DNA from: Chrysaora quinquecirrha | Lineage: Eukaryota > Cnidaria > Scyphozoa > Semaeostomeae > Pelagiidae | Length of the DNA: 64,000 bases | Direction of reading: 5' to 3' | NCBI GenBank assembly: GCA_014526335.1 | Contig: JACTAT010000037.1 | Location: 10,514,214-10,578,213, forward strand | Part shown: positions 299 to 29,100 of the stretch, in pieces | How positions within the stretch are numbered: the first letter of the stretch is position 1 | Layout: the number at the start of each line of letters is the position of its first letter | The notes under the pieces: generated by a model | What the model saw: only the letters and a program-made list of their open reading frames with translations | Database searches by the model: none | What the model was told of the DNA's origin: nothing | Translations under genes and position numbers: made by a program

Positions 299-3200
299 AA
301 ATTGTGCACTTTATGATACAAGCATGAAATTTGGCACAAGTACAGAGTTTGATGCGCCAAACAAAATTAGAAACAGACCCAACTCAGAAAATGCCCCCGA
401 AAGCTATTTTTAGACTGGGGTACTTGACCCCAATCCCCAAAAACTTTTTTTCTATAACTCGGAAACTATTAACGATACAGAACTGAAAATGAGTACAGTT
501 ACATATTTTAATATGCTTAATACAACGAAAAACAGATCCATTCAAAAAAATTCCCCCGAAAACTATTTTAAGACTGGGGTACTTGACCCCAGCCCCAAAA
601 ATATTTTTTTCGATAACTTGCAAACTATTTCCGATACGCAACGGAAAATGAGTACAGTTACATATTTGGTATGCTTAATACAACGAAAAGCAGATCCATT
701 CAAAAAAATTCCCCGAAAGCTATTTTTAGACTGGGGTACTTGACCCCAGCCCCAAAAGTATTATTTTCTATAACTTGCAAACTATTTCCGATACGCAACT
801 GAAGATGAGTACAGTTACATATTTGGTATGCTTAATACAACGAACAACAGATCCATTCAAAAAAATTCCCCCGAAAGCTATTTTTAGATTGGGGTACTTG
901 ACCCCAGCCCCAAAACATTTTTCCTCTATAACTCGGAAACTATTTACAATACAGCACTGAAAATTAGCAAAGTTACATATTTGGTATGCTTAATACAACG
1001 AACAACAGATCCATTCAACGAAATTCCCCCAAAGTTATCTTTAGACATGGGTACTCGGGTGTAGCCCTCTATAGGGTTTCCAGCTCAGAAGTTATTACGA
1101 TTCGAAATTCGTGTGACGTCATCAAAACGCAAAACTGATACCTTGAGTCTTAACCGTTTCGTGCATAAATCTTTCTTTTGATGTGTTCAGTGTTACTTTT
1201 AGGATAAAAGCATCATGTTCTCGATCACGTACGCTAATTTTTGTCATTTCAAATCTTAAATTATGAAGAATGCTCGTAATTTCAATTGCGATGCAGCTAG
1301 GGTTCCGAACTACTATGAATGTTGAAAAAGATGCAAAAGATAAAACATTTTCTGCTTACTTTCTCTGAGAATGGTAATATGATTGAGCTAGATAGATCTA
1401 AGCACTAAAACGTGGATCTCAAGGTAATCATATACCAAAAATAGGGGCACTGCTTACAAAAGTTGAACAGGCGCAGTTTGATACGTGGTCACTTGGTTAG
1501 GAAGAATGCTAAAAGAAAGAGGGGAACTGCCATTGAGGGTTGAGTTTCATTGCATAGACGAAACTCCATATCATCAATAGGTATGACCATTTCAGTCGAC
1601 AAGATTGGCGAAAGACAAGAAGAAATTGCGCAGCCACTTGCCAGCTACTTACGATTTTTCTGAAATGAACTGGAGCGAATCTTAGCGAAGCCAATCGACC
1701 GATTCAGTTTTAGTTCAATATTTCGGCAACAAAATTTGTGCCAGAATAGGAGCCACAAGCCAGAAATATCTGTATCTGCGAACTTACCCTATAAATCCTA
1801 TTTAGCCTTTTTCTTACGTTTTTTTATTATTATCATTCAGTGCTCGTCTCTGCTATTATAGGAGAACTCATCCCACAAAGCCGCACTTACAAAGTTATAC
1901 ATTTGTCAACGTAACAACTTGCGAACTGCGTCTCTCACCTTGAAGCTCTAAAAACGTAATCAAAATTCTTCGCAAAAGTCAATTCAAATAGCTTATCGAT
2001 TACTGTTATTGTAATCTTGTATAAATCTCTGTATTATGCCTATTAAGACTGATAAAAAGTGGCACACTTCGTACTTTAGCACGAAAGTGAACGGATTTTT
2101 CTGTGTCTCAGGTGAACCGTAGTATTTGAATTCCTCCAATCCACCACCAAGCCTGGTTTCCAAACTAGCAATATCCGTGCCTATGCCTTCGCCTACTTCT
2201 ATGCCTTCATCTACACCTTCGCCTGTGCCTATGCCTTGGCCTACAACAATGCCTCCATCTATACACATACACCTGTTCCTGTGCCTTCGCCAATGCCTTT
2301 GCCTTCGTCTACACCTGTGCCTATGCCTTCGCCTACACCAATGCCTACATCTACACCTACACCTGTGCCGATGGCTTTGCCTATGCCTTTGCCTTCATCT
2401 ACACCTGTGCCTGTGCCTATGCCTTAGCCTAGACCTATGCCTTCACCTACACATACACCTGTTCCTGTGCCTTCGCCTATGCCTTTGCCTTCGTCTACAC
2501 CTGTGCCTATGCCTTCGCCTACACCAATGCCTACATCTACACCTACACATGTGCCTATGGCTTTGCCTATGCCTTTGCCTTCGTCTACACCTGTAGCGAT
2601 GCCTTCGCCTACACCTATGCCTTCATCTACACCTACACCTGTGCCTATGCCTTCGCCTATGCCTTTGCTACATCTACACCTACGCCGGTGCCTGTGCCTA
2701 TGCCTTCGCCGATGCCTACACCTATACCTATGCCTTAGCCTAGGCCTATGCCTTCACCTACACCTACACTTGTTCCTATGTCTTCGCCTATGCCTTTGCC
2801 TTCATCTACACCTGTGCCTATGCCTTCGGCTACAACAATGCCTTCATCTACACATACACCTTTTCCTATGCCTTTGTCTATGCCTTTGCCTTCGTCTACA
2901 CTTGTGCCTATGCCTTCGCCTACACCAATGCTTACATCTACACCTACACCTGTGCCTATGGCTTTGCCTATGCCTTTGCCTTCGTCTACACCTGTAGCGA
3001 TTCCTTTGCCTAGACCTATGCCTTCATCTACACCTACACCTGTGCCTATGCCTTCGCCTATGCCTTTGCTACATCTACACCTACGCTGGTGCCTGTGTCT
3101 ATGCCTTCGCCGATGCCTACACCTATACCTATGCTTTAGCCTAGACCTATGCCTTCACCTACACATACACCTGTTCCTGTGCCTTCGCCTATGCCTTTGC

Positions 3201-4352
3201 CTTCGTCTACACCTGTGCCTATGCCTTCGCCTACACCAATGCCTAAATCTAGATCTACACCTGTGCCTATGCCTATGCCTTCGCCTATGTCTTTGCCTAT
3301 ACCTATACCTGTGCCTTAACCTACACCTGTGCTTTCATCTACACCTACACTTGTTCCTATGCCTTCCCCTATGCCTTTGTCTACAACTTATCGACATAGG
3401 TGTTTGCCGTCTTCTCGAACATTTACGGCTACATAATTCAAATTAAAGACCGTCGTCATAAAAAAGTAATTCGCTCTATCTGGCTCAATCATATTACCAT
3501 TCTCAGAGAAAGTAAGCAGAAAATGTTTTATCTTTTGCATCTTTTTCAACATTCATGATAGTTCGGAGCCCTAGCTGTATCGCAATTAAAATTACGAGCA
3601 TTCTTCGTAATTTAAGGTTTGAAATGCAAAAATTAGCGTACGTGACCAAGAACATGATGCTTTTATCCTAAAAGTAACGCTGAACACATCAAAAGAAATA
3701 TTTATGCACGAAACGGTTAAGACTCAAAATATCAGTTTTGCGTTTTGATGACGTCACACAAATTTCGAATCGTAATAACTTCTGAGTATTAAGCCAAATC
3801 GAATTGGTGTTTGATAATTTTTTGCTCCATTTCAGATGTTCTTTCTGACCATATCTTAAAAACACAAAATTCAAAAGTCAGATTTTCACTGACCGTAACT
3901 TTTCTACATCATCGATGACGTCACAACCATTGATTTGCCAGAATGTTCCCAAGTCTTAAAATGACCACCAACCACCAAAGAGTCCAAAGCTACTTTAAAA
4001 TTTCCGGTTACTCAGTGTGCTAGAATGTTGCCAAAAATGCCCTGTCTAAAATCTTTGGGGGCTGGGGTCAAGTACCCCAGTCTAAAAATAGCTTTCGGGG
4101 GAATTTTTTGAATGGGTTTGTTATTCCTTGTATTAAACATATTAAAATATGTAACTGCACTAACTTTCAGCTGCGCATCGCAAATAGTTTCCAAGTTATA
4201 GAAGGAAACTCTGTGGGGGCTGGGCCCAAGTACCCCAGTCTAAAAATAGCTTTCGGGGCCATTTGCTGAGTTGGGTCTGTTTCTAATTTTGTTTGGCGCA
4301 TCAAACTCTGTACTTGTGCCAAATTTCATGCTTGTATCATAAAATGCACAAT
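299..4352. mobile_element. 4-kb long-inverted-repeat element inserted in the SF3 gene
   Basis: The two ends are inverted copies: AATTGTGCA, then TTTATGATACAAGCATG, at the left, and the reverse complement ending at 4,352. Inverted similarity covers 299-1,060 versus 4,012-4,352, and again 1,075-1,385 versus 3,480-3,790. The left arm holds about four tandem copies of a unit of roughly 160 bp (near 415, 575, 734 and 892) that includes GGGGTACTTGACCCC; the right arm holds only one to two. The loop carries a hexamer minisatellite. No transposase reading frame is visible, so the element is non-autonomous or decayed. No convincing target duplication was seen. Confidence 0.75.
2177..3390. repeat. CCT-based hexamer minisatellite
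   Basis: About 1.2 kb of hexamers of the form CCTATG, CCTTCG, CCTACA, CCTGTG, CCTTTG, with a longer higher-order pattern that returns around 2,270, 2,450, 2,860 and 3,160. In one frame it reads Pro-Met/Pro-Ser/Pro-Thr, in others Leu-Cys/Leu-Arg. TAG stops and phase changes break every frame, so I treat it as non-coding satellite inside the inverted-repeat element. Confidence 0.85.
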
Positions 4353-6369
4353 TCATACCGATTTTGGTGTTTAGCGAACCCACTAGGCAGAGATTTTGTT
4401 TCGAAAACCATTATTCTTGAGCGAATGGCTTCTTCATCTACTTCGCTGAATGTTGGAATTTCGTTGCAGGTAATGTAAATTCCTGATCGATAGACCACTC
4501 TCACCGCTTCTTTGTGTTTCTGTGGGATTGCGACGTATCCACCCTGCAGGATTCTCTTGGCATCATCTGCTGTCAAGGCATCTGGAGGCCATTCATCGAC
4601 AAAAAGGCACTCCGTTTCTGATGTGAGCATGCTGGCTGAAAAATGTCGATCTCTCGTGACTGAGGCCAGTTTGTCCTGTGAAATTATACCCTCATAAGGG
4701 GCAAACCAATTTGTCTTGCCAGAGTCTGGGTCTCCAACGCAACACAACTTCTTTGTTTTCTGGGGAAACTGATCTTTCAGTGCAAGCTGATACCATTTTT
4801 GCAAAAAACCGAACTAACTGGTCGTCTTTTGGCAGGCTGTTGCGCAGACTATTCACAAACAAGCTGGGATATGGTACAACATCTTCTTTAAACGTATAGC
4901 TCACATAGGCTCTTGGAGAGATGACACCAATTTTTTCGTCTGCAATTATGTTTGGGTAAAAGGACTTCTTTGAGAAACTGAAACAGACACCATAAGGCTT
5001 CACCTCAACCAAGTCGTAGTCGATTTCGATCTGTCGTATGATTTTACAGCCCTTGAATGATAGGATACTGGCCACAGGATGCAATACAGAAGTGAGGACG
5101 TTGGCCAGCTGGGTGTTGCAGAGCAATGAATGCAGGAATTCCGTCACTGTAGAAGCTTTAATGAAAGCGTATTTTCCTGAAAAAGATAAATTTTTCAGAT
5201 TGATTGAGCTCTCAATTCACATGATATTTAAGTCATCAAGTTAATTGAAGAGGAATTTATAACGAATGCTAAACCGTTAACTTACCATTGGGTACTTTTT
5301 TGTAAATATATCCTCGATGGAGGCGTGCATCTAATCTTTCCATTGCTCGTTTTACGACATCTATTGCAATGCAGATTTTATCGCTCGGCTTTGCTTGCAG
5401 TTGCTGCGAGAAAGACGCATCTGATGTTGATGTTGATGACTGTGCATCGTCGGCCGTTGTCCTCTTGTCCACAAGATCGTACTCGAAATTGGTGTACTTG
5501 ATTTGATTGAGAGCTTTTATGAATGCTTCTCCAAATTCTCTTTTGCATTTTTCAGTCATAGTTATTCGTACTGGCTTGAATCCGAACTCTGCAGTTGGTT
5601 GAACCTAGAATAAATTGGAAGGGTTTACATCTGTATAAATAATCTGAGTTGATTAAAAGTGAGAATTAATGCTGATTTTTTTAAACACATAGATCATAAG
5701 TATTACCTCACAATTCGGGACTCGCACTCCAGTTGAAACATGAATGTACGATGATGTGTACTGTTGCGCTCCATCTTTGGCTAGCTGTTCGGCGTAATAG
5801 GACTTGTGGTCTTTCAAGGCTTGACATAACGTCGCTGTGTAGTAACTTGCCGTGTTTTCTCGTTTTCGAGCTTGTATCGGTCGACAGTTCTGAATCTCCA
5901 GTCCGGATGTCAGCATGACTTGAATCACTTTCTTCTCCATATCCTTTAGGCTGTGCTGTGGTACATCGACAACAATCCAAAAACTTATTCCCGGCTTGGT
6001 TTCTGAGTCATCACTGTCCGATTTATCTGAATCGTTTCCAACATTTTCTTCATTGTCATCTTGATTTTCCTGCCTCGCCGTCTTCTCAGTAGCCCCTCGT
6101 GTGTTACTTTTTCCTGCTTTTACCTCTATGCCTGTTATGCATGTCCAGACGATCAACGTATCCGGCTGATTTCGCAATAGAATCTCTAGTTGTCTTCTCT
6201 TCATTGCAATAAGACATTTTGCGAGTTCTTCATCTTTTTTCCTGGCATTCCAAAGAGCTCTCACACTGATTACCGAATAAGACTTTGCCACGACAGGCAC
6301 GACAAAATTCTCCAGAGCCTGTGACAGAGTTTTCGACCCAAGACGTCTAGCTGGCCTCTGTGAAGCCAT
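4353..6369 (-). pseudogene. SF3-type helicase (Rep-like) gene, three exons, broken
   Basis: Exon 1 is 5,707-6,369 (ATG at 6,369, ends with GTAATA donor), exon 2 is 5,286-5,604 (CTAG acceptor, GTAAGT donor), and exon 3 starts at 5,176 after TTTTTCAG; the phases agree (0, then 1). Exon 1 has a charged Asp/Ser-rich middle. Exon 3 carries Walker A GDPDSGKT, Walker B CLFVDEW, motif C IYITCNEIP and a later Arg pair (RSR), the order expected for superfamily-3 helicases, as in viral and mobile-element replication proteins. A one-base frameshift lies in a homopolymer near 4,805-4,812, and the gene is cut at 4,352 by the inverted-repeat element. The exact family is not recognised. An old viral or mobile-element copy that gained introns, or a host family, are both possible. 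Confidence 0.65.
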
Positions 6370-17100: not shown

Positions 17101-20100
17101 GATTTAAAAAAAATCATCATATAACAGGGGGTAAATCGAAAAAATGGAAAAATCGCTTTAATTCGAGTTAGTAGAATAACGTGCTGATATCTTATCGCCT
17201 TGTTGCAGATGTTTGCAGTGCAATTTCAAGCGATACACTCATTTTTTTTGCAAGAAACTATGCTCTGAGCCATATAGTAGAGTTTTTTAAACTTTGAGCA
17301 CAATTGGTAAGGTAATCGTAGCAGCACCTTTCCGCCCATCATCGATAGGTCATGTACCCCTGGGGTGAAGAAAGAGCTCTTCTGGCGATTTGACAAGAAA
17401 GGAGACCAGATCACCTCAACTCAATTATTAGGTATCCTAGGCCTGTATCCGCCTTCCTCCAGCATCTATTCCTTAACTCGTTGCTGCAGCTTTTCCTACG
17501 ATTTGTAGAGGGAATAAACCTACTATTAGGCCATATGAATAAAATGCTTTGATTTGAGTAGGTTGCAAAGGAGTGGCCAAACTGCAGTGATGGTGGCCTC
17601 AGCGCAGTGACGTCATAATCAGTGACGTCATCAGGTCGCGCTATAGTGCGACGGTTTTTATGAATATATTATGCTGGTTTCTCCAACCTCGTTTTCAAGA
17701 GTCTCACAGGGGTATCATCAGTGACGTCATCAGATCGCGCTATAGTGCAACGGTTTAATCTAGCGCGATGGTTTCTCCAACCTCCAACTTCGTTCCCAAG
17801 GATATCTGTTGTTGTTGTTGTTATCTCAAACCTCAACAGATACCCTTGGGACCGGCTTTCAAAAGTTTTTGGCTTGGAATAATTAGCATAAATTATGTAA
17901 ATGATTGCAGCAGTGGCCACAGCTCTTCAACTCGTCAATGAGTTTGAGACGCAGCAAAATGTTTTCGTTCGGTTGCACTTGCTTTCAACGATTCATTTCA
18001 AACAAAATAAAAAATAAATGCTTCAGAGGAATCAGAAGACAGAATGTTGAAGAAATATCTTAGAAATTCATGTTAGCAAGCTCTTGCTGTTGTTAGAAGT
18101 TATCAAGTTTGTTTATACTCGGGTTTATACTGAAAGTTTTATTGAGAGCTTCTACCGAGTTTTTACAAAAGCCATGAACTTGTATTACGTGAAGAATGAA
18201 GATTTTCGCTCATTATTGCTAGATACATTACTGCAGTGCCTTCCTATGCATTTCAGGTCAGAGCAATTTATTTAAGCCGGTAACTTTTTCTTCTTGAAGA
18301 TTCAAGTTGAATCATAAATATTTGCTGCAGAGAAGTTTGCTTTGCGATGCGTGAGCGTCAATGAGAATTCTCCACTTTTGAAGTTTTGTGCAACAAAATA
18401 AATGTTACAAAAAGCGACAAAAAGTTATTGCCGCTCAAATTTAAACAAACTTTTTTTCGAAAGTGCAAATTTTAAACTATTTCAGTTCATTTCGGCTTTC
18501 TTGAAAATTATTTTTCCTTTATCTTTTGCTGCTCAAAATTTTACCGCGGTAAATGCAAGTTTGTTTTCTTCAAATCTTCTGTATTTTTGCCGTGGAGATG
18601 TTAAACTGCAGCTATAATTTGCCTTCATCATTCCTTGTCTGTCTATTCTTTATATCCTAGTTCAAAGCAATAACATTTTAGCTGCTTTCTTTGTCATTTA
18701 GGAGTGGAAAAGCCCCGGGTTTGTTTTGAAATTTCTTTCATCAGGTCGAACGCCATTGGCGACTTTCTAATTTATGCGGACAACAAAATTTCTATTGTTC
18801 GGTCTTAGCCAATCAGAATGCAGAACAGCCAAACCGGTTCCAGGGTCAAATGTGGAAGGTTCTATTTGCCCTGGGTACGAGGTTGCTCCAACCTCAAGAG
18901 TTCTTACAATCCTTGCATGAAACCGCTAGCCTCGTTTCCGATTTAACAATCTAGAAGTTTCCAGAATGTTCCAGAACATCTCTAAGAATCCTACAATCTG
19001 ATTAGCTAGAACTTTCTAGAAGTTTCTAGAAGTTTCCAGAAATCCTACAATCTGATTGATTAATTATGATGGCGTAATAATAAATCGAACGCGACGTTCG
19101 AATCGTTTATTAAATAAAATAGCATAATAATCCTGCAATCTGATTGGCTAGAACTTTCTAGAAGTTTCCAGAATGTTCTAGAAGATGCTAGAACCGAGAA
19201 ATCTTACAATCTGATTGGTTTATACTCAAAACCGGTTTAAACCGGTTTGTTATGGATTTCATCATGATGGTGTAATAATTCGAACGTCACCTTCGAATCC
19301 ATGGCTTATGATAGCCTTATATTGTTTATACGCAAAAGTATTATCTAAACATTACAATATATTACCTATATACTCTATAGATAATAGCAATTTATTTATA
19401 GCATCGTTTTCAAAGAATGTTCACACAGAAACAAGATTATATTTCTAACAGACAACTAATAAAGAATAATTTCTAAACATTTTTTAAGTATAGCTATTTC
19501 TAGCTATTTCCATAGTATGGGAATAATCGAGTACTAGCATATTCAACTTCTTTCACACCAGCATCCTCAGAATTACTAGCTTCCTCTTCTTCATCATTCT
19601 TTGCTTGACGTATGATGAGATATTTTCTTTTTTCAATGGCATAATCTAAGGCCTCTTGCATATCCATACCATCTTCCTTTTGTGCTTTTCGCATCGTTGC
19701 TATGACTGCAGTCACAACAGCATCATTTTCAAAACTTCTATTATATAAAAATTTACGCCTGAAGACTTGCAGTATGTTTTCATCTTTATCAACTTCCCTA
19801 CGCATTGAAGGCCATACATTCCCTAAAGGAAGATCCTCCTCAGTGTTGACAGTTTCATCATCATCATGGTCACTTTCAGCTTCTATCTCATCATCATCTG
19901 AGTCAGACTCTTCACTACTCTCCTCATGCATCTCTTCTTCATGTCGCTTAACATTACTTTTAAACTTGGAAGAGAATTCACAATGATCACATTTATACTG
20001 ATTCATGATTAGCTGTTTGCTTATAATTGTCGACTACCACTTAAACACCTGAGTCCTAGAGCATAAACTCGCTTGAATTTATAGACTGATTCCTCCATTC

Positions 20101-23100
20101 AATATGATGCGGGAAAAGGAAGTCCGCACTTGCGCAGGAAGGTTGTTTCAAATCAAACCATACCTTATCCTTAACTAATCATCTCTTAATCATACTGACT
20201 AATCATACCTAATCCATAGTTAATCATTACTGATCCTTAACTAATCATTATTTCATCCTTGCTGATCCTAACCTAATCCTTACTGATCCTTAACTAATCA
20301 TTACCTGATCCTCACTAATCATTACTGATCCTTAACTAATGATTACCTGATCCTCACTAATCATTACTGATCCTCACTCATCCTTAGCTGATCCTTACTG
20401 ATCCTAACCTAATCCTTACTGATCCTCACTAATCATTACCTGATCCTCACTCATCCTTGGCTGATCCTTACTGATCCTAACCTAATCCTTACTGATCCTC
20501 ACTAATCATTACCTGATCCTCACTAATCCTTAGCTGATCCTTACTGATCCTTAACATATCATTACTGATCCTTAGCTGATCCTCACTGATCCTTACCGAT
20601 CCTTACCGATCCTTAACTAATCATTACTGATCCTCGCCCTGATCCTCACTAATCATTACTGATCCTCACTAATCATTACTGATCCTTAGCTGATCCTCAC
20701 TGATCCTTACCGATCCTTACCGATCCTTAACTAATCATTACTGATCCTCGCCCTGATCCTCACTAATCATTACTGATCCTCACTAATCATTACTGATCCT
20801 TAGCTGATCCTTACTGATCCTTAACAAATCATTACTGATCCTTAGCTGATCCTCACTGATCCTTACCGATCCTTACCGATCCTTAACTAATCATTACTGA
20901 TCCTCGCCCTGATCCTCACTAATCATTACTGATCCTCACTAATCATTACTGATCCTTAGCTGATCCTTACTGATCCTCACTGATCCTTACTTATCCTTAC
21001 CGATCCTCACTAATCATTACTGATCCTTAACTAATGATTACCTGATCCTCACTAATCATTACTGATCCTCACCCATCCTTAGCTGATCCTTACTGATCCT
21101 AACCTAATCCTTACTGATCCTCACTAATCATTACCTGATCCTCACTAATCCTTAGCTGATCATTACTGATCCTTAACTAATCATTACTGATCCTGGGCTG
21201 ATCCTTACTGATTCTTAACTAATGATTACCTGATCCTCACTAATCATTACTGATCCTCACTCATCCTTAGCTGATCCTTACTGATCCTAACCTAATCCTT
21301 ACTGATCCTGACTAATCATTACCTGATCCTCACTAATCCTTAGCTGATCATTACCTGATCCTTAGCTAATCATTACTGATCCTGAGCTAATCTTTACTGA
21401 TCATTGCTGATCCTTGCTGATCCTGAGCTGATCCTTAATGATCCTTAGCTAATCATTACTGATCCTCAACTAATCCTCCTAATACTTTACTAGCTATTTG
21501 AGCCAATGAAGTTGTAATGTTCTAGAATCTCTGATTCAAGACATTGCTCATTGGGTTAAAATAGCTAGTTAAGTATTAGGAGGATTAGTTGAGGATCAGT
21601 AATGATTAGCTAAGGATCAGTAAGGATTAGTTAAGGATCAGTAAGGATTAGCTAAGGATCAGTAATGATTAGTGAGGATCAGGGCGAGGATCAGGTAATG
21701 ATTAGTGAGGATCAGTAAGGATTAGTGAGGATCAGTAAGGATCAGCCCAGGATCTGTAAGGATTAGCTAAGGATCAGTAAGGATTAGTGAGGATCAGGTA
21801 ATGATTAGTTAAGCATCAGTAATGATTAGTTAAGGATCAGTAAGGATCAGCCGAGGATCAGTAATGATTAGTGAGGATCAGGTAATGATTAGTTAAGGAT
21901 CAGTAATGATCAGTAATGATTAGTGAGGATCAGTAAGGATTAGTGAGGATCAGTAAGGATCAGCCCAGGATCAGTAATGATTAGTTAAGGATCAGTAAGG
22001 ATTAGTTAAGGATCAGTTATGATCAGTAATAATTAGTGAGGATTAGTTAAGGATCAGTATTGATTAGCTTAGGATCAGGTAATGATCAGTAATGATCAGG
22101 TAATGATTAGTTAAGGATCAGTAATGATTAAGCAATGATTAGGTTAGGATCAGTAAGGATTAGCTAAGGATCAGTAAGGATTAGCTAAGGATCATTAAGG
22201 ATCAGCTCAGGATCAGCAAGGATCAGCAATGATCAGTAAAGATTAGCTCAGGATCAGTAATGATTAGCTAAGGATAAGGTAATGATCAGTAAGGATCAGT
22301 AATGATTTGTTAAGGATCAGTAAGGATCAGCTAAGGATTAGTGAGGATCAGGTAATGATTAGTGAGGATCAGTAAGGATTAGGTTAGGATCAGTAAGGAT
22401 CAGCTAAGGATGAGTGAGGATCAGTAATGATTAGTGAGGATCAGGTAATCATTAGTTAAGGATCAGTAATGATTAGTGAGGATCGGTAAGGATCAGTAAG
22501 AATCAGTGAGGATCAGCTCAGGATCAGTAATAATTTGTTAAGGATCAGTAATGATCAGTAAGGATAAGTGAGGATCAGTAAGGATCAGTAAGGATCAGTA
22601 AGGATCAGCTAAGGATCAGTAATGATTAGGGAGGATCAGTAATGATTAGTGAGGATCAGGGCGAGGATCAGTAATGATTAGTTAAGGATCGGTAAGGATC
22701 AGTAAGGATCAGTGAGGATCAGCTAAGGATCAGTAATGATCAGCTAAGGATCAGTAATGATTAGTGAGGATCAGGTAATCATTAGTTAAGGATCAGTAAT
22801 GATTAGTGAGGATCGGTAAGGATCAGTAAGGATTAGTGAGGATCAGCTAAGGATCAGTAATGATTTGTTGAGGATCAGTAATGATCAGTAAGGATCAGTG
22901 AGGATCAGTAAGGATCAGTAAGGATCAGTAAGGATCAGCTAAGGATCATTAATGATTAGTGAGGATCAGTAATGATTAGTGAGGATCAGGACGAGGATCA
23001 GGTAATGATTAGTTAAGGATCAGTAAGGTTTAGTTAAGGATCAGTAAGGTTCAGCCGAGGATCAGTAGGGATCAGTAAGGATCAGTAAGGATTAGTTAAG

Positions 23101-26100
23101 GATCAGTATTGATTAGCTTAGGATCAGGTAATGATCAGTAATGATCAGGTAATGATTAGTTAAGGATCAGTAATGATTTAGCAATGATTAGGTTAGGATC
23201 AGTAAGGATTAGCTAAGGATCAGTAAGGATTAGCTAAGGATCATTAAGGATCAGCTCAGGATCAGCAAGGATCAGCAATGATCAGTAAAGATTAGCTCAG
23301 GATCAGTAATGATTAGCTAAGGATCAGGTAATGATCAGCTAAGGATTAGTGAGGATCAGGTAATGATTAGTCAGGATCAGTAAGGATTAGGTTAGGATCA
23401 GTAAGGATCAGCTAAGGATGAGTGAGGATCAGTAATGATTAGTGAGGATCAGGTAATCATTTGTTAAGGATCAGTAAGGATCAGCCCAGGATCAGTAATG
23501 ATTAGTTAAGGATCAGTAATGATCAGCTAAGGATTAGTGAGGATCAGGTAATGATTAGTGAGGATCAGTAAGGATTAGGTTAGGATCAGTAAGGATCAGC
23601 TAAGGATGAGTGAGGATCAGTAATGATTAGTGAGGATCAGGTAATCATTAGTTAAGGATCAGTAATGATTAGTGAGGATCGGTAAGGATCAGTAAGGATC
23701 AGTGAGGATCAGCTAAGAATCAGTAATGATTTGTTAAGGATCAGTAATGATCAGTAAGGATAAGTGAGGATTAGTAAGGATCAGTAAGGATCAGTAAGGA
23801 TCAGCTAAGGATCAGTAATGATTAGTGAGGATTAGTAATGATTAGTGAGGATCAGGGCGAGGATCAGTAATGATTAGTTAAGGATCGGTAAGGATCGGTA
23901 AGGATCAGTGAGGATCGGCTAAGGATCAGTAATGATTTGTTAAGGATCAGTAAGGATCAGCTAAGGATTAGTGAGGATCAGGTAATGATTAGTGAGGATC
24001 AGTAAGGATTAGGTTAGGATCAGTAAGGATCAGCCAAGGATGAGTGAGGATCAGGTAATGATTAGTGAGGATCAGTAAGGATTAGGTTAGGATCAGTAAG
24101 GATCAGCTAAGGATGAGTGAGGATCAGTAATGATTAGTGAGGATCAGGTAATCATTAGTTAAGGATCAGTAATGATTAGTGAGGATCAGGTAATGATTAG
24201 TTAAGGATCAGTAAGGATTATGTTAGGATCAGCAAGGATGAAATAATGATTAGTTAAGGATCAGTAATGATTAACTATGGATTAGGTATGATTAGTTAAG
24301 GATAAGGTATGGTTTGATTGGAAACAACCTTCCTGCGCAAGTGCGGAATTCCTTTTCCCACATCATATTGAATGGAGGAATCAGTCTATAAATTCAAGCG
24401 AGTTTATGCTCTAGGACTCAGGTGTTTAAGTGGTAGTCGACAATTATAAGCAAACAGCTAATCATGAATCAGTATAAATGTGATCATTGTGAATTCTCTT
24501 CCAAGTTTAAAAGTAATGTTAAGCGACATGAAGAAGAGATGCATGAGGAGAGTAGTGAAGAGTCTGACTCAGATGATGATGAGATAGAAGCTGAAAGTGA
24601 CCATGATGATGATGAAACTGTCAACACTGAGGAGGATCTTCCTTTAGGGAATGTATGGCCTTCAATGCGTAGGGAAGTTGATAAAGATGAAAACATACTG
24701 CAAGTCTTCAGGCGTAAATTTTTATATAATAGAAGTTTTGAAAATGATGCTGTTGTGACTGCAGTCATAGCAACGATGCGAAAAGCACAAAAGGAAGATG
24801 GTATGGATATGCAAGAGGCCTTAGATTATGCCATTGAAAAAAGAAAATATCTCATCATACGTCAAGCAAAGAATGATGAAGAAGAGGAAGCTAGTAATTC
24901 TGAGGATGCTGGTGTGAAAGAAGTTGAATATGCTAGTACTCGATTATTCCCATACTATGGAAATAACTAGAAATAGCTATACTTAAAAAATGTTTAGAAA
25001 TTATTCTTTATTAGTTGTCTGTTAGAAATATAATCTTGTTTCTGTGTGAACATTCTTTGAAAACGATGCTATAAATAAATTGCTATTATCTATAGAGTAT
25101 ATAGGTAATATATTGTAATGTTTAGATAATACTTTTGCGTATAAACAATATAAGGCTATCATAAGCCATGGATTCGAAGGTGACGTTCGAATTATTACAC
25201 CATCATGATGAAATCCATAACAAACCGGTTTAAACCGGTTTTGAGTATAAACCAATCAGATTGTAAGATTTCTCGGTTCTAGCATCTTCTAGAACATTCT
25301 GGAAACTTCTGGAAAGTTCTAGCCAATCAGATTGCAGGATTATTATGTCTATTTGTGGAACTTTCTGGAAACTTTCTGGAAACTTCTAGTTCAGATTGTA
25401 GGATATTATGTTATTTTATTTAATAAACGATTCAACGTCGCGTTCGAATTATTATACGCCATCATAATTAATCAATCAGATTGTAGGATTTCTGGAAACT
25501 TCTAGAAAGTTCTAGCTAATCAGATTGTAGGATTCTTAGAGATGTTCTGGAACATTCTGGAAACTTCTAGATTGTTAAATCGGAAACGAGGCTAGCGGTT
25601 TCATGCAAGGATTGTAAGAACTCTTGAGGTTGGAGAAACCATCGCGCTAGATTAAACCGTTGCACTATAGCGCGATCTGATGACATCACTGATGATACCC
25701 CTGTGAGACTCTTGAAAACGAGGTTGGAGAAACCAGCATAATATATTCATAAAAACCGTCGCACTATAGCGCGATCTGATGACGTCACTGATTATGACGT
25801 CACTGCGCTGAGGCCACCATCACTGCAGTTTGGCCACTCCTTTGCAACCTACTGATTTGCTCAGAGCTCTGTCTTCGTCTTTTTCTTCCATCTTTGCACG
25901 CGGAGTGGAAAGAAGGCTAAGAGAGATTCCCCGTAGTTTTACAAAAGTTATATGTGCCCGATTAAAATATGTGCCCGTTTATAATAATCGATCACAAATA
26001 TTTAAAGTCGTGCAGTAAAGATATAAAGGCGTGCGATACAAATATAAAGTCGTGCAACTAAAATATAACAAATTACTGTCAGAAAAAGTTATATTTTTGG

Positions 26101-29100
26101 CCGGTTCGGCGCACGATAAATAAATGCTACAAGTTGCACTGACTGACTGCAAATGATTTGTGCGAAATGGTTCATTTCCTAGGGACTTCTTAGCAACATT
26201 TCTTATACTTCTGCAAAATAAGAAACCATATTCCAGAGGTTCAGGTTTAACATTTTCTGCTTGCTAAAGCCAAAACAAAAGCGCTGTTTTCTGTAACAGT
26301 GCAGATTTTTGCCTAATTTCCAACCTTTTCGATCTAGCTAATACTTACAAGAACAGAATTTAAATACGTATCAAGTAAATGTTGTAATGAATATTGAGGA
26401 AGTAAGTTGCAAAATAGATTTGTTGAATACGCACGCTAGTGAATCTATACGCACTACTGTGGTGGATACGCACTACTGTGGTGGTGTATTTTGCGTACTG
26501 TGGTGGGGTTTTTTGCGTACTGTGGTGGATAAGCTCTACTGTGGTGGGTTATTATGCGTACTGTGGTGGGTTATTATGCGTACTGTGGTGGGTTATTATG
26601 CTTGTTGTGGTGGGGTTTTTTGCGTACTTTGGTGGATAAGCTCTACTGTGGTGGGTTATTATGCGTACTGTGGTGGGTTATTATGCTTGTTGTGGTGGGG
26701 TTTTTTGTGTACTGTGGCGGATAAGCACTACTGTGATGGGTTATTATGCTTATTGTGGCGGGGTTTTTTGCGTACTGTGGTGGATACGCACTACTGTGGT
26801 GGGTTATTATGCTTGATGCGGTGACATTCTTTTGCTGTCTGTGGTCTGTGGTTGATACTCACTATTTGGGTGGTTTTTGCTTCATATTGTATGGATACGG
26901 CTTTGAAAAAACAGGTCATTTTTGATCGTCACTGATCTTTTGATCAACTACAAACAGATATTTTGACTATTTAAATTCGAAAGTCGAAAATTTTACCAAC
27001 TGTAGGAAATCGATGACAGTCTTGTGCTAAAAGCATAACCCCAAGACATACAGAAAGTCTTATATTTTCTGAGCCTGGTTTTAAAAAAAAAACGTAGCAT
27101 ATTATGAACTCTCAAAGATTGTAAAAAATCTCAGATAAACGTCAGAAAAAATTCTTTCGATGTGGTTTGGGCCGGGCCTGCCCGCATTATTCCAAACACG
27201 TGAAGTATTAAGAGAAGAAGAATATTTTTAGACTAAAAACCCAGGCTAAGCAATAAGACTTTCTGTGTGTTTTTGGGATATTCTTTTAGCTGGGACTGTC
27301 ATCAATTTCCTGTGGTTGATCAAAAGATCAGTGACGATCAAAAATGACCTGTTATTTCAAAGCCGTATCCATACAATATGAAGCAAAAAAACCACCCAAA
27401 TAGTGAGTATCAACCACAGACCACAGACAGCAAAAGAATGTCACCGCATCAAGCATAATAACCCACCACAGTAGTGCTTATCCACCACAGTGCGCAAAAA
27501 ACCCCGCCACATGAAGCATAATAACCCACCACAGTAGTGCTTATCCACCACAGTACGCAAAAAACCCCACCACAACAAGCATAATAACCCACCACAGTAC
27601 GCATAATAACCCACCACAGTAGAGCTTATCCACCACAGTACGCAAAAAACCCCACCAAAACAAGCATAATAACCCACCACAGTACGCATAATAACCCACC
27701 ACAGTAGTGCTTATCCACCACAGTACGCAAAAAACCCCACCACAACAAGCATAATAACCCACCACAGTACGCATAATAACCCACCACAGTAGAGCTTATC
27801 CACCACAGTACGCAAAAAACCCCACCACAGTACGCAAAATACACCACCACAGTAGTGCGTATCCACCACAGTAGTGCGTATAGATTCGCTAGCGTGATGC
27901 GCATCTCGTATAAAGTATAGCTATAGAATCTTTTGCAATGTTTGAAAATCAAAGCTTTTGCAATGAGTCTACTTAACCTAAGTTAGACATGAAATATTTC
28001 TGAAAAGGGATAAATAGCTTTTTAAGTCAGGCCTCTGTGGCGTGCTTTTCCAATGCCATTGTATCAGCACTCCATTTATCTCGTTAACAGCTTGTACGAA
28101 TGAGCTCGAAATGTTGCTTGCATTAATTTTGATTCAATTATTTTCTTGCAGGAGTTCTATCTTACATTAAGGCGACAGTATAGAGGTCCAGAAAGCACCC
28201 CGGTTACAACAAGGCAGCTAGAGTCACTAATTAGGCTAACAGAGGTAAGCTGATCGTTAGTTGGTTGTTTTATACTAGCCCTTGCCCTTGTGAGTGAGAC
28301 CACCGCCTGAGCAAGGACCTCCGCTTTCAAGGACTTCCTCCTCCCAAGGACTCTTGGGTGAGGGATTAAGCCTTTAATTTGCTATACTTGCTCTGAATGT
28401 TAATCTTAATGTTAATCCTAATCTTACTTACTCTTAATGTCAATCTTATTCTTAGTTTTGGTCTTTGTGTTAGACTGAAATTTAAAACTTAATGCTAATG
28501 TTTATCCTAGTCTTGAACTTAACGTATAGTTAATCATAATCTTAATCTCAATCTTGATGTTAGCCTTGTCTTAGTCTTAAACTTTAAATGAATCTCAATC
28601 TTGAATTTTAACTTAACTTCAACTTAAATTTCAAAATAAATGTAAATCCGATCCTCAACTTAAAATGCGTCTTAATGTTGCTTGCAACATAAGAATAAAG
28701 CAGTTTAAACTTAACCGTTTGCTGCTCATGTTCCTTAGTTTTGTATTTCTTGTTGCTGTTCAGTCATGCTCCTTTGTCCTACCTTAGCTTGTTCTTTATT
28801 ACGGTCATCAGTTCTGTTTCTTAACCTTGTTATTGCTCATGTTCTTCAGTCCTGTTGTCCTATTTTTTTGCCATGTTACTCTGTCTTGTTTCTTTTCATG
28901 GTATTCAGCCCTGTTCCTTCGTCCTGTTCCCTAGGCTTGTTCTAATTAATGTTCCCCAGTCCTGTTTCTGGGTCCTGTTCCTAAGCCTTGTCACTGCTTG
29001 TATTCTTCAGTCCTGTTTGTTCGTCCTTTTCCCTAGTCTTGTTCTTATTAATGTTCCTCAGTCCTGTTGGTCGGTCCTGTTCCCCAGCCTTGTTGTTGCT

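What the first reader, a model, noticed from the sequence alone, without database searches (positions are those of the whole stretch)
18954..19193. Heat-shock-element clusters inside a transposon arm
Seen: three clusters of alternating GAA/TTC triplets in exact 5-bp register: five units (18,954-18,976), seven units (19,009-19,041) and nine units with one mismatch (19,151-19,193), with ATTGG/CCAAT motifs next to them. The mirror arm has the same set at 25,277-25,567. Seven perfect units are very unlikely by chance. Known: HSF trimers bind such arrays, and the plant retrotransposon ONSEN is heat-activated in this way. Inference: the element is heat- or stress-responsive and could give nearby genes heat control, here inside a DNA-repair gene.
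Basis: partly seen in the sequence, partly recalled or inferred. Interest (0 to 1): 0.9.

Follow-up and report, generated by a model that had tools for sequence, protein, structure and literature searches.

The report
Virus-like transposon with heat-shock promoters
The heat-shock-factor binding sites in this transposon are real and belong to a large family of virus-like (Polinton-type) transposons whose DNA polymerase gene carries what looks like a heat-shock gene promoter, so host stress may switch the family on; no expression was measured.

Summary
Perfect HSE arrays (5, 7 and 7+1 units) lie where reported; the mirror arm has a similar, not identical, set. 200 simulated windows gave no array of 5 or more units. 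Genome-wide the 7-unit pattern has 1,010 overlapping matches, the reversed control 0. The window element (17557-25853) is an 8.3-kb palindrome in an MCM8 intron with AGTAGG/CCTACT ends, a 6-bp target duplication and two 168-aa C2H2 ORFs. Larger elements (15-24 kb) with the same ends are Polinton/Maverick-type: protein-primed polB, and near many polB genes an A32-type ATPase. There the HSEs sit in promoter position: 14 of 14 polB starts read have HSE arrays upstream, 13 with CCAAT, 11 with TATA at -47/-48. 55 exact CCAAT-TATA cassettes exist, control 0; 35 lie within 400 bases of a listed polB hit. A second cassette precedes another gene, in one copy just before the ATPase. HSE triplets vary 3.3 times less than linkers. 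Best reading: host HSF drives this family; the window element is a non-autonomous derivative carrying the promoter arms. Heat control of MCM8 is not shown. Function is inferred from sequence alone.

The parts
17551..17556 (.). left target-site duplication GATTTG
   Evidence: repeated at 25854-25859
25854..25859 (.). right target-site duplication GATTTG
17557..25853 (.). palindromic non-autonomous Polinton-type element, 8,297 bp including a nested MITE
17557..17784 (+). left terminal inverted repeat, 228 nt, starts AGTAGG
   Evidence: (I8, 99% complementary)
25626..25853 (-). right terminal inverted repeat, ends CCTACT
17788..18897 (.). nested hAT-like MITE (similar inverted ends, 8-bp duplication CCAACCTC)
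   Evidence: read by eye; absent from the right arm; superfamily name recalled
18954..18976 (.). HSE array, 5 perfect units
19009..19041 (.). HSE array, 7 perfect units
19151..19193 (.). HSE array, 9 units, the eighth mismatched
19143..19147 (.). ATTGG (CCAAT box) beside the third array
19214..19218 (.). ATTGG (CCAAT box), place of the CCAAT of the polB promoter cassette
25277..25319 (.). HSE array, 9 units with one mismatch
25358..25386 (.). two 3-unit HSEs out of register by one base
25490..25512 (.). HSE array, 5 units
25545..25567 (.). HSE array, 5 units
25252..25256 (.). CCAAT box of right arm
25323..25327 (.). CCAAT box of right arm
19500..20006 (-). 168-aa C2H2-type ORF (left copy), reads outward
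24464..24970 (+). 168-aa C2H2-type ORF (right copy), reads outward; zf-H2C2_5 E 2.2e-5, just below the Pfam cut-off; 151 genomic matches
24387..24392 (+). TATAAA, presumed core promoter of the right ORF (no HSE array of 3 or more units upstream in the element's inner part)
   Evidence: read
20223..21466 (.). decamer repeat array, left arm
21592..24271 (.). decamer (AGGATCAGTA) array, right arm
28152..28244 (+). MCM8 exon right of the element (bounds approximate)

Best explanation
The arrays are genuine heat shock elements and belong to the promoter of a Polinton/Maverick-type family. In the larger elements HSE arrays followed by a CCAAT box and, mostly, a TATA box sit directly before the start codon of the protein-primed DNA polymerase gene; a second copy of the cassette precedes an unidentified gene that, in the one copy read far enough, is followed by the A32-type ATPase. 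Shown: the anatomy, its repetition in many copies, and lower diversity of HSE triplets than of their linkers. Inferred: that the host's heat shock factor binds, so that heat, other protein-damaging stress, infection, or normal HSF activity in germ cells switches on replication and mobilisation genes. The window element is a palindromic, non-autonomous derivative that kept the TIR-HSE arms, lacks the polymerase and carries a C2H2 ORF probably under selection. It is presumably mobilised by the larger elements and spreads HSF-binding arms through the genome, here into an MCM8 intron.
For: HSE excess: 3,008 five-unit matches against 19 reversed, 1,010 seven-unit against 0; matches overlap within arrays. 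Identical 6-bp duplications beside AGTAGG/CCTACT tips in 5 of 5 elements with both tips in hand. 115 polB-N matches; 14 of 25 PF03175 polymerase-domain hits within 3 kb downstream of one; 10 of 13 A32 ATPase hits within 15 kb of a polB-N hit, all convergent. Promoter: 14 of 14 polB starts with HSE upstream, 11 with TATA at -47/-48; 55 cassettes against 0 control, 35 of 55 before a listed polB hit, 28 of them at 32-33 bases. Diversity 0.043 in triplets, 0.142 in linkers, 0.076 in flanks; the true phase is best of five. One hsp70 promoter of the same genome has HSEs and CCAATCAG; HSF DNA-binding domains exist.
Against: No transcript or binding data. Only 14 polB upstream regions were read, 3 of them chosen by HSE, and L064 and L093 only partly; L074/L087 and L080/L083 are pairs of ends of single elements. 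20 of 55 cassettes have no listed polB within 400 bases (the list holds 115 matches out of 671 candidates). 5 of 30 TIR loci lack arrays. In the window copy the arrays lie 3' of the ORF and the polB-type TATA is gone. No adenain-like protease hit (19, PF00770) lies within 24 kb of a listed polB-N hit; the capsid protein was not identified. Alignments of periodic arrays could slip by one period, which would inflate linker diversity. The ORF copies used for dN/dS were the 30 best by protein score, which lowers dN.
Confidence: 0.75

Rival explanations
1. The arrays are subterminal binding sites for an element protein (replication, integration or packaging) that only resemble HSEs.
For: Many transposons carry subterminal repeats (general knowledge); the arrays lie next to the TIR and the elements encode C2H2-type proteins.
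Against: The exact alternation of GAA and TTC is conserved against the linkers; arrays come with CCAAT and mostly TATA at fixed distance before polB; in L091 a cassette lies about 5.8 kb from the element's tip before another gene; the other end of that element, L082, lacks arrays at its TIR.
Confidence: 0.1
2. The HSEs serve constitutive HSF activity in germ line or early embryo, not heat; they are a germ-line expression device.
For: HSF is active in oocytes and early embryos of several animals (recalled, no call); germ-line expression is what a vertically inherited element needs.
Against: Nothing here distinguishes the inducers.
Confidence: 0.3
3. The arrays are relics of a captured hsp promoter that now decays and does nothing.
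For: Many copies carry stops; the window copy lacks the TATA of the cassette.
Against: Triplets are more conserved than linkers and flanks; many open frames remain.
Confidence: 0.1
4. The insertion gives MCM8 heat control.
For: The element lies in an MCM8 intron.
Against: No promoter-proximal position was shown; no expression data.
Confidence: 0.05

Closest known systems
Polinton/Maverick elements (vertebrate Mavericks, PMC8097293, passages seen)
   Same: TIRs, 6-bp target duplications, ends close to AGTAGT (here AGTAGG), protein-primed polB, ATPase; rve integrase near some polB genes
   Different: HSE-CCAAT-TATA cassette before polB and before an ATPase-side gene; the word 'heat' does not occur in that paper's main text; protease not found here
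HSE-bearing Helitrons of Caenorhabditis (PMC6927752, passages seen)
   Same: a DNA transposon that multiplies tandem HSEs through a genome
   Different: Helitrons lack TIRs and target duplications (recalled); here a Polinton-type family, with HSEs in the promoter position of the element's polymerase gene
ONSEN, Arabidopsis (recalled only)
   Same: HSE-driven mobile element
   Different: LTR retrotransposon of plants
Foldback elements (recalled only)
   Same: long palindromic arms with inner tandem repeats
   Different: ends, duplication and partner elements are Polinton-type; arms carry HSEs and an ORF
Mavirus provirus reactivated by a giant virus (only its title seen, in the reference list of PMC8097293)
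   Same: integrated relative of Polintons waiting for a trigger
   Different: proposed trigger here is host HSF, not an incoming virus

Membership tests
Polinton/Maverick (larger elements of this genome) | terminal inverted repeats with AG(T)-type ends | tested here: met
   28 of 30 TIR loci have the exact AGTAGG tip; L089 has one change, L084 no tip
Polinton/Maverick (larger elements of this genome) | 6-bp target-site duplication | tested here: met
   identical in 5 of 5 elements with both tips in hand: C378, C271, C285, the short C368 one and the window element
[quoted passage not shown]
   25 PF03175 hits, all over cut-off (91 of 227 candidates scored), 14 within 3 kb downstream of a polB-N match
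Polinton/Maverick (larger elements of this genome) | A32-type packaging ATPase | tested here: met
   10 of 13 PF04665 hits within 15 kb of a polB-N hit, two of them beside the same one; over cut-off but weak, E 2.8e-4 to 1e-3
Polinton/Maverick (larger elements of this genome) | rve integrase | tested here: inconclusive
   one hit between the two convergent polB starts at C146 and one 13.7 kb from the C386 polB (left end of that element not seen); only 150 of 1,415 candidates were scored, and many are retrotransposons
Polinton/Maverick (larger elements of this genome) | adenain-like protease | tested here: inconclusive
   19 PF00770 hits in the genome, none within 24 kb of a listed polB-N hit; a diverged gene or an unlisted polB would be missed
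Polinton/Maverick (larger elements of this genome) | major capsid protein | not tested
Polinton/Maverick (window element as non-autonomous member) | same TIR and 6-bp duplication | tested here: met
Polinton/Maverick (window element as non-autonomous member) | own polymerase and integrase | tested here: not met
   within 17557-25853 the two 168-aa ORFs are the ones of 100 aa or more; the polB-like remnant of some sister copies was not found in this one. It is filed as a derivative, not as a full Polinton
Heat shock element | three or more inverted nGAAn units at 5-bp spacing | tested here: met
Heat shock element | bound by HSF and heat-inducible | not testable with these tools
   no binding or RNA data
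ONSEN-like (copia LTR) element | LTRs and reverse transcriptase | tested here: not met
   inverted, not direct, terminal repeats; no RT among ORFs of 100 aa or more in the element
Helitron | no TIR and no target duplication | tested here: not met
   TIR and 6-bp duplication present

The most novel reading that the evidence does not exclude
Host heat shock factor is the master switch of an endogenous virus-like Polinton: the same HSE-CCAAT-TATA cassette controls the replication polymerase and the gene beside the packaging ATPase, so host stress triggers a coordinated induction comparable to prophage induction. Non-autonomous palindromic satellites copied the arms and made this family the genome's main source of strong HSEs.
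Probability: 0.45. Interest if true: 0.92.

Novelty: new variant of a known kind. Interest (0 to 1): 0.8.

Why it matters
Polintons carry virus-type genes, yet what switches them on in animals is, to my knowledge, open. Here a testable answer is written in the DNA: HSE arrays, CCAAT and TATA before the polymerase gene, repeated in many copies of one genome. It would link host stress to the activity of an endogenous virus-like element and explain how a few hundred clusters of strong HSF sites (extrapolated from 26 clusters in the roughly 100 listed places) were scattered through a genome.

Tried and rejected
Rejected: chance arrays; an ONSEN- or Helitron-type element. Considered and not tested: a hairpin RNA read through the palindrome. 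A fold of the 168-aa protein gave mean pLDDT 51 and was not searched further. Relatives of the 168-aa ORF elsewhere: four proteins at 73-98% identity, without names. IMG/VR held no confirmed relatives of polB or of the ORF. Six-unit HSE arrays in IMG/VR: 15 stretches, against 28 for the reversed pattern, so HSE arrays are not enriched in that collection, and none of the 15 encodes a relative of the polB or ORF queries. ORFs of L082 that I first took as capsid-like lie outside that element's tip (coordinates) and are not used. Pfam (4 of the 6 proteins) and PHROGs (2 of 2) gave no match. The species stayed unnamed.

Print: searches that pair Polinton/Maverick with heat words were made; in their listings I saw no paper that joins Polintons with HSEs. 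One search found 1,030 papers and listed 15, all without 'Polinton', so that absence is weak; most subscription journals are not held. Papers seen in passages: PMC6927752, PMC13104882, PMC6505742, PMC8097293, PMC4642659; all others only as search listings.

Full report
Observation. The window lies in an unnamed 328-Mb genome (contig C290). The HSE arrays are at the stated places: 5, 7 and 7 perfect units on the left, the last extended to 9 with one mismatch. The right arm carries 9 (one mismatch), 3+3, 5 and 5. In 200 first-order Markov windows no array reached 5 units. Genome-wide, five-unit matches number 3,008 (1,470 + 1,538) against 19 (11 + 8) for the pattern read backwards, and seven-unit matches 1,010 (492 + 518) against 0. 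Matches overlap, so these are not counts of arrays.

The element. It is a palindrome from 17557 to 25853 with 228-nt TIRs of 99% identity, tips AGTAGG and CCTACT, and GATTTG on both sides. A 1.1-kb hAT-like MITE sits in the left arm (read). Each arm has, from the tip inward: TIR, HSE arrays with CCAAT boxes, the 168-aa ORF reading outward, and a long decamer array. The ORF has 151 matches (150 of 606 candidates scored). Of the 30 best matches, 23 were full-length and stop-free, 20 of them distinct: mean dN 0.012, dS 0.059, ratio 0.21 over 190 pairs. These were picked by protein score, which lowers dN, so selection on the ORF is probable, not proven. The element lies in an MCM8 intron.

The family. 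The outer 231 bases have 48 matches (40 of 624 candidates scored). 25 of 30 TIR-chosen and 29 of 30 ORF-chosen loci hold at least one perfect array of 4 or more units; without the window's own arms, 23 of 28 and 27 of 28. Without arrays are L066, L076, L077, L078, L082 and, among ORF loci, L017. Conversely, the first 30 listed places of the seven-unit pattern fall in 12 clusters on contigs C2 and C46. With arrays masked, 11 of 12 match the arm flank, TIR, ORF or polB (L031 only by 32 bases of arm flank, but it has the MAAIYEV cassette below). The twelfth, L039, encodes genes also found in L091 inside the C378 element. So 12 of 12 belong to the family. Of 26 clusters in the roughly 100 listed places, coordinates alone placed 14 within 4 kb of a feature I had typed in; those lists are truncated.

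The larger elements are Polinton-type. L082 and L081 are the two ends of a 17.6-kb element with duplication CACCGA; C271 (15.6 kb, CATGAA), C285 (23.6 kb, ACAGTC, with gypsy-like ORFs), the short C368 element (4.3 kb, ATCAAT) and the window element complete 5 of 5 with both tips in hand. PMC8097293 (passages) gives TIRs, 6-bp duplications and AGT-type ends for vertebrate Mavericks. A polB N-terminal query has 115 matches (114 of 671 candidates scored). PF03175 has 25 hits, all over cut-off, 14 within 3 kb downstream of a polB-N match on the same strand. Of 13 A32-type ATPase hits, 10 lie within 15 kb of a polB-N hit, convergent. One rve hit lies between the convergent polB starts at C146 and one 13.7 kb from the C386 polB. 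Against a complete gene set: none of 19 PF00770 protease hits lies within 24 kb of a listed polB-N hit, and the capsid gene was not tested. Nine convergent polB-N pairs 6.6-16.9 kb apart show that polB starts can occur at both ends. polB relatives in other databases include proteins of spiders, ants, beetles, a pearl oyster and a coral, mostly named uncharacterised.

Promoter position. For the 14 polB starts in hand (L034, L035, L045 chosen by HSE; L064, L069, L072, L074, L075, L080, L081, L083, L086, L087 by TIR; L093 by polB), all 14 have HSE arrays of 4 or more units within 490 bases upstream, 13 have CCAAT/ATTGG (L087 has none) and 11 have TATA at -47 or -48 (L045, L075, L087 have none). 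L064 and L093 were read only 164 and 318 bases upstream; L074/L087 and L080/L083 are two ends of single elements. The CCAAT-TATA cassette occurs 55 times exactly, 0 times in the control; 35 of 55 lie within 400 bases upstream of a listed polB match on the same strand, 28 at 32-33 bases; 20 do not. A cassette with HSEs also precedes the MAAIYEV gene in L031, L039 and L091 (in L091 the array has 4 units); in L031 the next ORF is the A32 hit. The one hsp70 promoter read (gene) has two 3-unit HSEs and CCAATCAG. Six HSF DNA-binding matches exist, two near full length.

Constraint. 56 loci (28 ORF-chosen, 28 TIR-chosen; the window's own four left out) were projected on the window arm; 53 aligned (not aligned L017, L066, L082). 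Diversity is 0.043 in HSE triplets, 0.142 in linkers and 0.076 outside; the true phase separates best of five shifts (ratio 3.29, next 1.97), permutation p 0.00035. The ratio is 3.73 for ORF-chosen (p 0.00015) and 2.64 for TIR-chosen loci (p 0.01). Slippage of alignments by one period could add to the contrast.

Reading. The short palindromes look like derivatives of a polB end: some sister copies keep a polB-like remnant of 49 residues at 65% identity inside the arms, and some keep the cassette with TATA. The window copy shows neither. Its ORF has its own TATA (24387-24392) without HSEs. Hence HSF would act directly on the parents' polymerase and ATPase-side genes, and in short elements mainly as carried arms. 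Heat control of MCM8 is a possibility without evidence. No expression, binding or induction was measured. In IMG/VR the HSE pattern is not enriched (15 against 28 reversed), so this is a property of this family, not of viruses at large.

Noticed in passing
window 4337-6369, minus strand: ORFs, one with an SF3-helicase-like motif (CCVGDPDSGKT), reminiscent of parvovirus NS1 (recalled resemblance); could be an endogenous viral element.
   Followed up: no
window 26411-27906: A second palindromic element next door, with 22-base ACTGTGGTGGGTTATTATGCG-type repeats in inverted arms.
   Followed up: no
window 21592-24271 and 20223-21466: Decamer arrays (AGGATCAGTA) upstream of the TATA of the 168-aa ORFs, where polB has HSEs; possibly sites of another activator.
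   Followed up: no
L087 (C285:466832): Gypsy-like integrase/RT ORFs near the Polinton tip, one stretch inside the element, probably a nested insertion.
   Followed up: no
C235, C290, C186, C320, C129, C146: Pairs of convergent polB starts 14.7-16.9 kb apart, perhaps Polintons with a polB start at both ends.
   Followed up: partly
C387:1757480-1768610 and C271:326638-341589: A protease hit about 10 kb from a PF03175 hit, and another about 14 kb from an A32 hit, away from listed polB-N hits: perhaps a second Polinton family.
   Followed up: no
window 2126-3446: Low-complexity tandem repeat coding Leu/Cys-rich or Pro/Ser-rich frames.
   Followed up: no
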